This document shows positions 21,402-28,216 of a stretch of DNA of 64,000 bases, piece by piece. This stretch comes from Bdellovibrio bacteriovorus (lineage in GTDB: Bacteria > Bdellovibrionota > Bdellovibrionia > Bdellovibrionales > Bdellovibrionaceae). The translations under genes and the position numbers were made by a program. The notes under the pieces were generated by a model. That model saw only the letters and a list, made by a program, of their open reading frames with translations, was not told the DNA's origin and searched no databases. Where the stretch lies: NCBI RefSeq assembly GCF_001592745.1, contig NZ_LUKD01000001.1, forward strand, positions 1,632,848-1,696,847. The letters run 5' to 3'. How positions within the stretch are numbered: the first letter of the stretch is position 1; every line of letters starts with the position of its first letter.

Positions 21402-22418
21402 CTATCCTGTCTTTTGTTTTTTCTTTGTGAGTTCTCCGCAAAGCAGCTTCATGCGATCAAACTCTTTCGTTGAAACAATGGTGCGTGGTCCATTTCTTTG
21501 TTCGGCAGCCATTTGATTCATCTGCACAACACGCTCACGACTTGGTGGGTGTGTGCTCATGGCGTCTGCCAATGAAGAGAGCATTTTATTCTGTTCGCCT
21601 TTGGACTGTTCTTCCATCTTAAGAAGCTTTTCATAGAAAAGACCGACCTTGTCTTTATCGTAGCCAGCAGCTACGGAAGTTCTAAAGCCAATACGGTCTG
21701 CTTCCATTTCATCTTCCCGCGAATTTGCCATAAAGGCATATTTCTGAACTAACAAGCCGCCGCCGGCTCCGGCTGCAAGCCCATACGCCGTCGCTTTCTG
21801 CATGCATTGATCATCACCTTGGTTGCACAGAAGCTTCCCAATGCCATATCCCAAAGCGCCACCCAGAATTCCACCGCCCGCAGCGTACATCCAAGACTTA
21901 CCTTCGGCTTTTTTCGCGGCATCCATGCGTTGAGCGGTGTGACGTGCTTTCACGTGACCGACTTCGTGCCCGATGACCCCTGCAAGTTCGGCTTCGGAAT
22001 CCGCCATCGCGATCAGTGGGGCTGTCACAAAGATAGTTCCTGCGGGAAGGGCAAATGCATTCACGTAACCTACGTCGACAACTGTGAAGTTGTAGTTATA
22101 GGGATTTCCCTGAAGATTGTTCGCCGTCACTATCTTACGACCCAACTGAGAAATGTAAGACTGAAGCTGTGGGTTTTGCACAGGCGGATAGTCTTTGCGC
22201 ATTTGCGGCAAAGCTTCCTTAGTCAGATTTCGTTCTTGATCGTATGTCAAAGTGGTTTCATCACCGCGCAGATTCCCCTCGCGTTGGCGGTGCTGTTCGG
22301 TCGAGCACGCCGCCATTAAAAGGGGAATGGAAGTCAGAAAAGTTCTTCTTCCCATTGGGGTGCTAATCCATTGATCTAAGACTTCATCGAGTTTTAATAG
22401 AGCTTCTTTTTGATTCAT
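21402..22418 (-). CDS. M48-family metallopeptidase lipoprotein with Tat-like signal
   Basis: A 338-residue zinc peptidase. The active-site HEVGH is at 151-155 and the third ligand in EDEMEAD is about Glu237. The signal region has a twin arginine (GRRTFLTS, Arg24-Arg25) followed by a hydrophobic stretch and lipobox LMAAC (Cys38). A Gly-rich hydrophobic segment sits at about 178-225, as in BepA/LoiP-like M48 proteins that act on misassembled outer-membrane proteins. The ATG at 22418 was chosen over a GTG at 22454; neither has a strong ribosome-binding site. The 23 residues before the twin arginine are long for a Tat signal n-region. Confidence 0.85.
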   Translation of the reverse strand: MNQKEALLKLDEVLDQWISTPMGRRTFLTSIPLLMAACSTEQHRQREGNLRGDETTLTYDQERNLTKEALPQMRKDYPPVQNPQLQSYISQLGRKIVTANNLQGNPYNYNFTVVDVGYVNAFALPAGTIFVTAPLIAMADSEAELAGVIGHEVGHVKARHTAQRMDAAKKAEGKSWMYAAGGGILGGALGYGIGKLLCNQGDDQCMQKATAYGLAAGAGGGLLVQKYAFMANSREDEMEADRIGFRTSVAAGYDKDKVGLFYEKLLKMEEQSKGEQNKMLSSLADAMSTHPPSRERVVQMNQMAAEQRNGPRTIVSTKEFDRMKLLCGELTKKKQKTG

Positions 22419-22530
22419 ATAAAAACTAAAGCAAACGCCTTTCTGAAGAGCCACATTTTCTTTCGTGAAAACAGGCGAAAGTCCAGGTCAAACCCCTTGG
22501 GCCCGGGCGTAAAAATTCCGAAAAAGAAGC

Positions 22531-23469
22531 ATGCGTTTTATGTACGTATTGCTATTTCTTTTTAGTTTCCATTTTTCTTGGGCCATCACCCCCGAAGAAG
22601 CCTGTCAGTTTAAGGAAGCCGTTCAAGCAGCGCCAGATGATTTTTCATCCCGCGATCGCATGATGGCGGAAGAGCTTTGCAGTGCCGCTGGTCACTACGA
22701 AGAACCTTTGCTGCCGGATCAGAACGCTTCAAAAAAAGTCGGCACCTCGGCGGCGATGACGGACTATTCCGAGTTCTATCAGTCACTTTCAAAGTCCTTA
22801 AACAGTTTAAATAAACCCGAGATCTGCGACCCGAAGGAAAACGCTCCGAAAGGCGTCGTTTATCCGACGATGACTTTAGCAAAAACGGCTGCCGGGAACA
22901 TTCCGGTGTCTGTGTTGACGGAAGACGAAGCTAAAAAGATTTTCTCTGAATTTTCTAAAGACGAAAGATATGCTTTCGGTGCAACTCAAAACGGGTGCTA
23001 CGCCCGCGCCCATATTTTTGCGCAACAGATGGAGAAAAAAGGTATTCGCGTCGCCAAGATGTTTTTAGAAGGGGAGCTCATCATTCCTGAAGAGAAGCGA
23101 CAATATCCCGAAAACTACATGTGGAATTACCATGTGGCCCCCGTTGTCGCCGTTCAAACCAAAAAGGGAATTGAGTTGCATGTTTTAGATCCGGCTCTGT
23201 ATGACAAGCCGGTACCGGTGAAGCAGTGGACAGATAAACTTTTGACGACTCCACAAGCGAAGAAAGAAGCTCTTGCGTACATCACTGATCGTTTTAATTT
23301 AGGGCCTTTACGTGGCGAAACTTTGCCCTCGGCCAAGAACGAACCCAATCGTTTGAAATGGCATGCTGCGGACACAGTTCAATCTGAGCAAGAATTAGAG
23401 GCTCGTCGTGAAGAACAAAGTATGTTGGCTTATGAGCGAGAGCAGTTAAAGCGCGAGAAGGGACTTTAA
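22531..23469 (+). CDS. Secreted protein-glutaminase-like enzyme
   Basis: A 312-residue secreted protein with signal peptide ending SFHFSWA. The region 150-225 has the order of the bacterial protein glutaminase fold (PF18626-like, from memory). It has Cys156 in NGCYARAHIFAQQM, His201 in MWNYHVAPVVAV and Asp220 in HVLDPALYDK, a Cys-His-Asp triad. Enzymes of this family deamidate protein-bound glutamine. The C-terminal part is charged and helical. A predator could use it on prey proteins, but that is speculation. It is followed after one base by a small secreted protein, suggesting an operon. Confidence 0.75.
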   Translation: MRFMYVLLFLFSFHFSWAITPEEACQFKEAVQAAPDDFSSRDRMMAEELCSAAGHYEEPLLPDQNASKKVGTSAAMTDYSEFYQSLSKSLNSLNKPEICDPKENAPKGVVYPTMTLAKTAAGNIPVSVLTEDEAKKIFSEFSKDERYAFGATQNGCYARAHIFAQQMEKKGIRVAKMFLEGELIIPEEKRQYPENYMWNYHVAPVVAVQTKKGIELHVLDPALYDKPVPVKQWTDKLLTTPQAKKEALAYITDRFNLGPLRGETLPSAKNEPNRLKWHAADTVQSEQELEARREEQSMLAYEREQLKREKGL

Positions 23470-23470
23470 G

Positions 23471-23746
23471 ATGAAATTCATTCTAGTGACGTTGCTTCTG
23501 TTTTCTCAAATCTCATGGGCGCAGACATCTACGCCGAAGTCGCAATCATTTACCGACAAAGTATATAAGATTGAAAACGTGAACGAAAAAGTGCGCGTGT
23601 CCTTTAAGCTTCATCCCAGCATTTATGAACTGACGGGTAACGAGCCGTTTATGGATAATCTCAAACAAAGTTTGAAATTAAAAAAACCAGTGAAGTTTTC
23701 CATCGATCAAAAGACACGCAAAATTATTGATGTGAAAGGGCCTTAG
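23471..23746 (+). CDS. Small secreted hypothetical protein
   Basis: A 91-residue protein with signal peptide ending SQISWAQ. The mature part is basic, with short beta-like segments (VRVSFKLHPSIYEL; KPVKFSIDQKTRKIIDVK), somewhat like small periplasmic metal-binding (CusF-like) folds, but no metal ligand pattern was identified. It starts one base after the glutaminase-like gene, so it could be its partner or inhibitor; no direct evidence. Its stop is adjacent to that of the convergent helicase gene. Confidence 0.7.
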   Translation: MKFILVTLLLFSQISWAQTSTPKSQSFTDKVYKIENVNEKVRVSFKLHPSIYELTGNEPFMDNLKQSLKLKKPVKFSIDQKTRKIIDVKGP

Positions 23747-27059: not shown

Positions 27060-28121
27060 CTACTTTGTGGCTTTTGGGTATTTAAGATCTCTTTGGTAGA
27101 ACGCTTCTAGCCAAGATTTTTTGGGAAATAAAACATCCCATTTCTTTTCTAACGAGTAAGCCATGTACGGCGTTTGCACGCGGTAGTTCCATTCACCTTG
27201 GAGGCTAAGCACATGGAAAGTGAAGCTCTCAGCAAAGTCTTCATAAGGTGAAACGGCCGCATAAGTTGAAACGAAGTTTGTCTGATCCAGTTGTCGATAG
27301 AAGCTTTCCATGTCGGCGACTGTCAGGCGTTCATTACAACCATAAAAACAAAGCTTATCCCAAAGTGGAAAACGTTGTGCATCCTGTGGATACATCGGGT
27401 TTTTCCAGCTTAAAGCACCAAAAGAATTTGCCGCGGGAACCATTTTCCCAAACTCGACCGGATCCCACTTGCTCAAATCACAAGTTTCATTCGCAGGGCA
27501 GACAAATTCATTCGCGGAATTTGCAAAATCTAAAATATGACCGATTTCGTGAATGAAAATATATTGAAGCGCGGACAAGCTATGCGGAAGGATAACTTCG
27601 ACTCGCGGTCCATCTGGTAAGTGTACAAAAGGAGGGGCGATAATGCCGAAAGCTTTTTGCTCTTTCCAACCGAAGACGGAAGTCGCGTCGTATGCTGTTT
27701 CTAAAAGTGTACGGCGAACCCCGATAAAAGAACCTTCGACCTCGCCTTTTTCGTTGGCGCGAATGATACCCGCATAGGCTAAAGACTCCACATCACTTTC
27801 AACGAAAATAGCATCAAGTCCGCAAAAAGCCTTTTGCAGCTTTTCGGGCAAAATATCGTAGATCTTTTCAATGGGGGCGGCGAAGTTTTCGGACCCGCTA
27901 AGACACTGGCGGGGGCCATTCGGTGAAGATGAGTTATCCACCAAACAGATCACTTGTTTGATGCGGTCTCGGCAGCTAACTGAATTCAACGGAGTGAATC
28001 TTTGGCTAGGGGTGCGTTCAATTTGGAATTCTGAGGGCTTCAGGATGTAAAAATCCTCCCAGGCAAAGGCCGCCGGAGTTAAGGATAAGACCAGTAATAT
28101 CAAACAGATAAGATTTCTCAT
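27060..28121 (-). CDS. Secreted zinc-metalloprotease-like protein
   Basis: A 353-residue secreted protein with signal peptide LLVLSLTPAAFA. A zinc-binding HExxH motif is present in YIFIHEIGHILDFANSA. A Cys-rich stretch (FVCPANETCDLSKWD) and a further FGCNERLTVAD-type region follow. The family is not recognised, but the motif and secretion signal suggest a periplasmic or secreted peptidase. The ATG at 28121 has GAGGGGTG upstream, whereas the longer frame does not have a signal peptide at its N-terminus. It is divergent from rpsU. Confidence 0.7.
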   Translation of the reverse strand: MRNLICLILLVLSLTPAAFAWEDFYILKPSEFQIERTPSQRFTPLNSVSCRDRIKQVICLVDNSSSPNGPRQCLSGSENFAAPIEKIYDILPEKLQKAFCGLDAIFVESDVESLAYAGIIRANEKGEVEGSFIGVRRTLLETAYDATSVFGWKEQKAFGIIAPPFVHLPDGPRVEVILPHSLSALQYIFIHEIGHILDFANSANEFVCPANETCDLSKWDPVEFGKMVPAANSFGALSWKNPMYPQDAQRFPLWDKLCFYGCNERLTVADMESFYRQLDQTNFVSTYAAVSPYEDFAESFTFHVLSLQGEWNYRVQTPYMAYSLEKKWDVLFPKKSWLEAFYQRDLKYPKATK

Positions 28122-28216
28122 AAACACCCCTCGATGAATTTTTCCCGTGCTTTCCCTGGCTGCGCAATAAAAAAGCACATTGGAAATAATAATTCATCGC
28201 GTTAAGACCCCGAGAC

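What the first reader, a model, noticed from the sequence alone, without database searches (positions are those of the whole stretch)
22531..23469. Secreted protein-glutaminase-like enzyme in a possible predator
Cys156-His201-Asp220 in the family's order with a signal peptide. Deamidation of prey proteins would be a new predatory activity. The one-base gap to a small secreted protein suggests a partner or inhibitor.
Basis: partly seen in the sequence, partly recalled or inferred. Interest (0 to 1): 0.6.

Follow-up and report, generated by a model that had tools for sequence, protein, structure and literature searches.

The report
Deamidase with separately encoded pro-domain
A bacterium of a predatory genus makes a secreted protein-deamidating enzyme whose safety catch, elsewhere built into the same protein, seems to be made as a separate small protein by the next gene, an arrangement found widely in its phylum.

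Summary
The 312-aa protein at 22531-23469 is a protein-glutaminase homologue (Pfam PF18626, E 1.1e-26) with Cys156, His201 and Asp220 as stated and a likely Sec signal peptide. The new result is the small secreted protein one base downstream (23471-23746, 91 aa). Its family profile finds, as best hits among all PDB sequences, the PRO region of Chryseobacterium protein-glutaminase (3a56, E 1.5e-5; residues 31-90). Its predicted fold also ranks the pro-forms first (Foldseek; VIA-align Z 9.9, 1.8 A over 69 residues, 3a54 residues 21-92). So the zymogen appears split: catalytic domain and pro-domain are separate adjacent genes. A profile built from other loci found the partner directly downstream in 30 of 69 distinct enzymes from a public genome collection. 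In Bdellovibrionota it is a separate downstream gene; in several other phyla it is fused N-terminally. One relative has it fused C-terminally. Most likely the partner is a pro-domain acting in trans: it plugs the active site in the periplasm until removed. Inhibition is inferred, not shown; a co-fold did not settle docking. Nothing ties it specifically to predation. New variant of a known kind; SpeB-Spi is the nearest precedent.

The parts
22531..23469 (+). Gene of a secreted protein-glutaminase-family enzyme (312 aa)
   Evidence: Pfam PF18626 E 1.1e-26; PDB protein-glutaminases E 7.4e-9 to 1.8e-5; orthologues in the genus
22531..22584 (+). Likely Sec signal peptide of the enzyme (aa 1-18, MRFMYVLLFLFSFHFSWA)
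   Evidence: read from sequence; no predictor run
22585..22890 (+). N-terminal extension of the enzyme (aa 19-120), without detectable pro-domain
   Evidence: partner/pro-domain profile gives no hit in this ORF
22930..23238 (+). Catalytic domain match (aa 134-236)
   Evidence: PF18626 profile 1-105 of 106
22996..22998 (+). Cys156 codon, catalytic nucleophile
   Evidence: invariant in the 12 sequences of alignment A2; position checked
23131..23133 (+). His201 codon, catalytic
   Evidence: invariant in A2; position checked
23188..23190 (+). Asp220 codon, catalytic
   Evidence: invariant in A2; position checked
23471..23746 (+). Gene of the small secreted partner (91 aa): trans-encoded pro-domain / inhibitor
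   Evidence: family profile best hits in PDB are pro-regions 3a56/3a54; model pLDDT 87.7, Foldseek ranks 1-3, VIA-align Z 9.9
23471..23521 (+). Likely Sec signal peptide of the partner (aa 1-17, MKFILVTLLLFSQISWA)
   Evidence: read from sequence
23537..23743 (+). Beta-barrel pro-domain (aa 23-91)
   Evidence: aligned to 3a54 residues 21-92, rmsd 1.8 A, 69 residues
23612..23626 (+). Plug motif H48-P49-S50-I51-Y52; P49 aligns with Ala47 of pro-protein-glutaminase
   Evidence: profile alignment; residue columns over 55 downstream partners

Best explanation
The two genes encode one zymogen in two pieces. The first makes a Sec-exported protein-glutaminase-type enzyme (side-chain deamidation of protein glutamine by a Cys-His-Asp triad); the second makes its pro-domain as a separate Sec-exported protein. 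In the periplasm the small beta-barrel binds the enzyme and lays its H-P/A-x-x-Y strand into the active-site cleft, a small residue (Pro49 here, usually Ala) taking the place of the substrate glutamine, so the enzyme is silent until the partner is digested or lost. Shown here: family of the enzyme, homology of the partner to the pro-region, conserved same-strand adjacency, one natural fusion. Inferred: binding, inhibition, help in folding, release mechanism, and any role on prey.
For: (1) NCBIfam NF040782 (protein-glutaminase preproenzyme) is hit by the enzyme at 168-255 and by the partner at 52-110 (E 0.019), i.e. in the pro-region. (2) Profile of 24 partners against all PDB sequences: 3a56 E 1.5e-5 and 3a54 E 6.4e-5, both at residues 31-90; next, unrelated, 0.12. 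(3) Partner model pLDDT 87.7, about 95 over the domain; Foldseek ranks 1-3 of 350,542 chains are pro-protein-glutaminase, rank 6 is 8z3i; VIA-align 3a54 Z 9.9, 1.8 A, 69 residues, chain 21-92. (4) The profile, built without them, finds a partner directly downstream (E<=1e-3) in 30 of 69 distinct enzymes of genome contigs. (5) Of 87 partner hits among 3705 ORFs in enzyme loci, 63 lie directly downstream, 20 are fused, 4 elsewhere on the same strand, 0 on the opposite strand; commonest gaps -4 (19) and -1 (8) of 55. (6) L063 is a natural enzyme + C-terminal partner fusion. (7) The same profile, not iterated, lands N-terminal of the catalytic domain in L157, L173 and L193 (E<=7e-4). (8) The column aligned with Ala47 is A 41, P 10, S 4 of 55, never Gln; 3a54 is titled the A47Q1 mutant. 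(9) Cleaved propeptide co-purifies with a mature protein-glutaminase, and pro-form activity is about 17-fold lower (PMC13139226, passages).
Against: No binding or inhibition was measured. The co-fold of a relative's pair, read through its stops as one chain, had confident domains but pTM 0.63 with a disordered linker: docking is unresolved. The barrel is a common OB-type fold: SilF scores Z 8.7 and AB5-toxin B subunits about 8. Foldseek E 3.5e-3 is modest, and the single window partner sequence alone did not find 3a54. 73 of 161 distinct enzymes have neither a cis nor an adjacent trans pro-domain, plus 8 undecided at contig edges, so the partner is not universal. Two paired enzymes lack the catalytic His (L132, L136). 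One cis pro-form (Bacteroides helcogenes) is active unprocessed (PMC13139226), so inhibition may be partial. The 21 adjacent seed members of A1 were picked by adjacency and motif, so adjacency among those is by construction.
Confidence: 0.8

Rival explanations
1. The partner is mainly a folding chaperone (steric foldase) for the enzyme, needed to reach the active fold; inhibition is a by-product or absent.
For: Pro-domains of secreted enzymes often act as intramolecular chaperones (recalled); adjacent, co-exported genes fit.
Against: A small non-Gln residue is kept at the column aligned with the residue mutated to Gln in 3a54, which points to active-site occupation. Many relatives do without any detected pro-domain.
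Confidence: 0.12
2. The partner is a binding or delivery subunit that carries the enzyme to a target, as OB-fold B subunits do in AB toxins.
For: OB-type barrel; B subunits of AB5 toxins score Z about 8.
Against: Closest in both sequence and fold is the pro-region of the same enzyme family, and the same domain is cis N-terminal in other phyla. Similarity to B subunits is at the level of a common fold.
Confidence: 0.04
3. The partner is a periplasmic metal-binding protein of the CusF/SilF kind, co-transcribed by chance.
For: SilF is the next best fold after the 3a54/3a56 pro-forms (Z 8.7).
Against: No Trp and a single Met in the mature part, whereas CusF/SilF bind metal with Trp, Met and His (recalled); the sequence profile finds pro-protein-glutaminase, not CusF; adjacency recurs across the phylum.
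Confidence: 0.02

Closest known systems
Protein-glutaminase of Chryseobacterium proteolyticum (EC 3.5.1.44; PDB 2zk9, 3a54, 3a56) and Flavobacterium FBPG (8z3i)
   Same: Catalytic family and triad; pro-region homologous to the partner
   Different: There the pro-region (114 aa, PMC6132073, passages) is in the same chain before the mature enzyme; here it is a separate gene placed after the enzyme gene
SpeB-Spi of Streptococcus pyogenes
   Same: Inhibitor resembling the propeptide, encoded next to the enzyme (Spi is called a propeptide analogue in PMC2873492, passages)
   Different: Different enzyme family (C10 protease, which keeps its own cis propeptide as recalled); here no cis pro-domain is detected in the paired enzyme
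Staphopain-staphostatin, and Bacteroides fragilis Bfp-Bfi
   Same: Secreted cysteine enzyme with an adjacent co-transcribed inhibitor; staphostatin is a beta-barrel that lies in the cleft in a substrate-like manner (PMC2873492, PMC7863939; passages)
   Different: Staphostatins are lipocalin-like and Bfi proteins show no significant identity to propeptides (PMC2873492)
CusF/SilF periplasmic metal chaperones
   Same: OB-type barrel fold
   Different: Metal-site residue make-up absent; no sequence match in the profile search

Membership tests
Protein-glutaminase family (PF18626) - enzyme | Match to the Pfam model above its cut-off | tested here: met
   93.6 bits against 25
Protein-glutaminase family (PF18626) - enzyme | Cys-His-Asp triad in order in GCxxRA / HVA / DP contexts | tested here: met
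   C156, H201, D220; aligned with 8z3i and 2zk9
Protein-glutaminase family (PF18626) - enzyme | Protein-glutaminase fold | tested here: inconclusive
   Sequence matches to solved structures; a relative's enzyme was modelled and gives 8z3i Z 19.1; the window enzyme itself was not modelled
Protein-glutaminase family (PF18626) - enzyme | Pro-region N-terminal in the same chain | tested here: not met
   No pro-domain hit in the enzyme ORF; it lies in the next gene
Protein-glutaminase family (PF18626) - enzyme | Deamidation of protein-bound glutamine | not testable with these tools
   needs purified enzyme
NCBIfam NF040782 equivalog (Chryseobacterium-type protein-glutaminase) | Score above 250 bits | tested here: not met
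   46.7 bits
Protein-glutaminase pro-domain - partner | Sequence homology to the pro-region | tested here: met
   family profile: 3a56 E 1.5e-5, residues 31-90
Protein-glutaminase pro-domain - partner | Same fold as the pro-region | tested here: met
   Foldseek ranks 1-3; Z 9.9, 1.8 A over 69 residues
Protein-glutaminase pro-domain - partner | Sits in the active-site cleft | tested here: inconclusive
   co-fold of a relative's pair, pTM 0.63
Protein-glutaminase pro-domain - partner | Inhibits the enzyme | not testable with these tools
   needs assay
Spi-type propeptide analogue | Adjacent gene, propeptide-like, inhibits the neighbouring enzyme | tested here: inconclusive
   adjacency and propeptide homology met; inhibition untested; homology to Spi itself not tested
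CusF/SilF | OB barrel with a Trp/Met/His metal site | tested here: not met
   fold similar but no Trp and one Met in the mature part; metal ligands recalled

The most novel reading that the evidence does not exclude
In Bdellovibrionota the protein-glutaminase zymogen is broken into two genes and the freed pro-domains have become a family of periplasmic inhibitors: some paired with their enzyme, others standing alone (one in the window's own genome) and acting on unlinked paralogues. This inhibitor set would let a predator keep deamidases silent inside itself and arm them only after release into prey, where digestion of the partner by prey or predator proteases switches them on.
Probability: 0.2. 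Interest if true: 0.75.

Novelty: new variant of a known kind. Interest (0 to 1): 0.57.

Why it matters
A zymogen split into two genes makes pro-domain function directly testable: enzyme and pro-domain can be titrated against each other with no cleavage step. It gives a likely function to a family of small secreted proteins that no Pfam model names above cut-off for the window member and that is widespread in Bdellovibrionota, and it offers a natural inhibitor for an enzyme class used in food processing. If the enzymes reach prey, protein deamidation would be an activity to look for in predation.

Tried and rejected
Single-sequence phmmer of the window partner against PDB found nothing useful (best 0.72); the family profile was needed. 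Pfam scans of the 24 members of A1 gave only weak, scattered matches (best E 0.011; most families in one member); NCBIfam showed the protein-glutaminase model in 4 of 24 members and one-off weak hits otherwise. AF2 co-fold of a relative's pair did not decide docking; Foldseek and VIA-align on that model aligned mainly the enzyme part or the partner part, so they do not speak to docking. A MAFFT alignment of unpaired enzyme and partner rows was misplaced and discarded; 5 of 10 partner rows were misplaced in the next trial and left out of A3. The first classification script was wrong (it dropped partners whose start overlaps the enzyme's stop) and was replaced; its counts are not used. Co-occurrence of the standalone partner with the unpaired paralogue clade in 24 genus genomes, tallied by hand (13 both, 2 enzyme only, 4 partner only, 5 neither), gives Fisher p 0.06, uncorrected for kinship: a lead only. 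Literature: no paper in the library holds both 'protein glutaminase' and Bdellovibrio; nothing on a trans-encoded pro-region was seen in the listings; this library lacks most subscription papers. Hashizume 2011 (structures of the pro-forms) is not held; only its title was seen, its content is recalled. The N-terminal extension (aa 19-120) was not explained. The tree is a 'quick' one with many open forks; it was not used to count how often the split arose.

Full report
OBSERVATION. The enzyme ORF (22531-23469, 312 aa) and the small ORF (23471-23746, 91 aa) are present, same strand, one base apart. Cys156, His201 and Asp220 are correct. The enzyme scores 93.6 bits against PF18626 (cut-off 25; E 1.1e-26) and matches solved protein-glutaminases over residues 149-248 (8z3i E 7.4e-9, 2zk9 8e-6). 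A profile of 12 family members finds the same structures at E 2.8e-28 to 1.9e-25. It falls below the NCBIfam equivalog cut-off for Chryseobacterium-type enzymes (46.7 of 250 bits), so it is a family member, not an equivalog of the industrial enzyme. Both proteins begin with a hydrophobic stretch ending in SWA, read here as Sec signal peptides by eye.

ORGANISM. Genus Bdellovibrio: genus-mates G014 and G003 hold contigs (8118 and 6507 bases, with the same genes) that the public collection lists as Bdellovibrio sp. DR_7_2.37 and RX1_metabat.bin.37. Genus and phylum names were looked up.

THE CLUE. One NCBIfam model, the protein-glutaminase preproenzyme, was hit by both proteins in different parts: the enzyme at positions 168-255, the small protein weakly (E 0.019) at 52-110. 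The literature gives 21 aa signal, 114 aa pro and 185 aa mature for that enzyme (PMC6132073, passages), so 52-110 lies in the pro-region.

TEST 1, SEQUENCE. Alignment A1 holds 24 partners: 21 next to enzymes and 3 standing alone. Its profile against all PDB sequences gives 3a56 (E 1.5e-5) and 3a54 (6.4e-5), both pro-protein-glutaminase, both at chain residues 31-90; the third hit is unrelated at 0.12. The aligned motif is FkkHaaiYel against FMLTAQFYEI, with A at chain residue 47. 3a54 has Q there and is titled the A47Q1 mutant. By the title of its paper the pro-forms were 'converted into enzyme-substrate complex' (title seen; paper not held; details recalled), so this residue should lie where a substrate glutamine would. 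In 55 downstream partners that column is Ala 41, Pro 10, Ser 4, never Gln; the Tyr three on is kept in 52 of 55. In the window it is Pro49, with Tyr52. The cis sequences align with a one-residue shift there, so their column is not counted.

TEST 2, FOLD. AF2 of the window partner: mean pLDDT 87.7, pTM 0.70, 24 rows; strands 24-37, 40-45, 51-54, helix 61-70, strands 73-79, 84-89. Foldseek against 350,542 chains: ranks 1-3 are 3a56_A, 3a56_B, 3a54_A (E 3.5e-3 to 4.4e-3, prob 1.00, TMq 0.62-0.64); rank 6 is 8z3i. VIA-align: 3a54 Z 9.9, rmsd 1.8 A, 69 residues, chain residues 21-92; 3a56 9.7; SilF 8.7; 8z3i 8.5; AB5-toxin B subunits about 8. The fold is a common OB-type barrel, so fold alone would not decide; sequence and fold agree on the same stretch of the same protein.

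TEST 3, NEIGHBOURHOOD. In 161 distinct enzyme catalytic domains (92 from genome-search loci, 69 from genome contigs), the pro-domain is a downstream gene in 55 (23 and 32), an upstream hit at a contig edge in 1, fused N-terminally in 23 (all in genome contigs), fused C-terminally in 1, absent in 73, undecided at contig or locus ends in 8 (iterated profile, E<0.05). Without iteration, A1, built only from genome-search loci, finds a directly downstream partner at E<=1e-3 in 30 of the 69 independent genome contigs enzymes (counted by hand) and an N-terminal fused one at E<=1e-3 in 3 (L157, L173, L193). Among 3705 ORFs in the enzyme loci there are 87 hits at E<1e-3 with the iterated profile: 63 directly downstream, 19 fused N-terminally, 1 C-terminally, 4 elsewhere on the same strand (two are second tandem partners), 0 on the opposite strand (these counts include loci fetched twice). 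Commonest spacings are -4 (19) and -1 (8) of 55, typical of translational coupling. By NCBI phylum name, the 32 downstream cases of genome contigs are 27 Bdellovibrionota, 1 Myxococcota, 1 Bacteroidota, 1 Gemmatimonadota, 2 unnamed; the 23 fused cases are 13 Pseudomonadota, 3 Actinomycetota, 2 Bacteroidota, 1 Thermodesulfobacteriota, 1 Planctomycetota, 3 unnamed, none Bdellovibrionota. The 80 loci were the best matches to a Bdellovibrionota query out of 247, so these are not population frequencies. 13 of 55 paired enzymes have 10 to 90 residues before the catalytic domain, too few for a signal peptide plus a 70-residue pro-domain.

TEST 4, FUSION. L063 (G029) encodes enzyme and C-terminal partner in one 339-aa ORF. 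An assembly error is not excluded.

TEST 5, CO-FOLD. The enzyme-partner pair of L133 (Bacteriovorax sp., partner 12 bases downstream and in frame) was folded as one chain, reading both intervening stops as Ser. Both domains were confident but pTM was 0.63 and residues 182-200 were under 50. The enzyme part matches 8z3i (Z 19.1) and 3a54 (Z 18.0). This neither supports nor refutes docking.

MECHANISM. Best reading: trans-encoded pro-domain. Both proteins are exported; the barrel binds the catalytic domain and its H-P-S-I-Y strand fills the cleft, Pro49 replacing the glutamine side chain; the enzyme wakes when the partner is digested or lost. That a free pro-domain can stay bound is suggested by the Bacteroides helcogenes enzyme, where a band taken as the cleaved 12-kDa propeptide co-purifies with the 21-kDa mature enzyme and the pro-form is about 17-fold less active (PMC13139226, passages). 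The same paper reports that this pro-form is active unprocessed, so inhibition may be incomplete. The precedent for a propeptide-like inhibitor next to its enzyme is SpeB-Spi, and for adjacent inhibitors staphostatins and B. fragilis Bfi (PMC2873492, PMC7863939, passages).

GENOME CONTEXT. The window's genome holds three PF18626 enzymes above cut-off (C1:157968, C1:1391126 and the window's) and two partner genes at E<0.01 (window; C1:1050085-1050396, minus). The two other enzymes have no adjacent partner (L079, L120). Partner genes occur in 19 of 24 genus genomes; the window-type pair in 9 of 24. Whether the standalone partner serves unlinked enzymes is an open lead.

PREDATION. No result bears on it. 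The enzyme family is common in non-predators. The split arrangement is concentrated in Bdellovibrionota, which includes predators, and one entry labelled Micavibrio sp. (L192) also has it, but common descent would explain most of this as well.

VERDICT. Observation confirmed; enzyme identity confirmed at family level; partner identified as a trans-encoded pro-domain homologue with good confidence; inhibition and biological role untested. New variant of a known kind.

Noticed in passing
G000:C1:1050085-1050396 (L205), also L049, L060: A standalone partner-like secreted gene (105 aa) with no enzyme beside it; in the neighbourhoods looked at it lies by a 137-138 aa secreted coiled-coil-like gene and an aroB-like gene. 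Similar second-locus hits occur in 17 of 24 genus genomes.
   Followed up: partly
L132:2264-3010 and L136:2258-3010: Two paired enzymes of Bacteriovorax-type bacteria have Leu or Asn instead of the catalytic His (SYLVAP, GYNVAP): possible pseudoenzymes that keep the partner.
   Followed up: no
L164:3010-3555 and L171:3001-3554: Two tandem partner genes follow one enzyme gene.
   Followed up: no
window 21402-22454 (-): A secreted M48-type metalloprotease gene (HEVGH) is divergent from the enzyme, 76 bases away; by the coordinates the same divergent neighbour is seen in L001-L003 but in none of L004-L008.
   Followed up: partly
G006:C1 (3,782,950 bases): Contig length equals that recalled for B. 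bacteriovorus HD100; this genome lacks the window-type pair but has two other enzyme-family matches and a partner-like gene at 3409129-3409437.
   Followed up: no
window 27060-28178 (-): A secreted protein with a HEIGH zinc-protease motif lies about 3.3 kb downstream.
   Followed up: no
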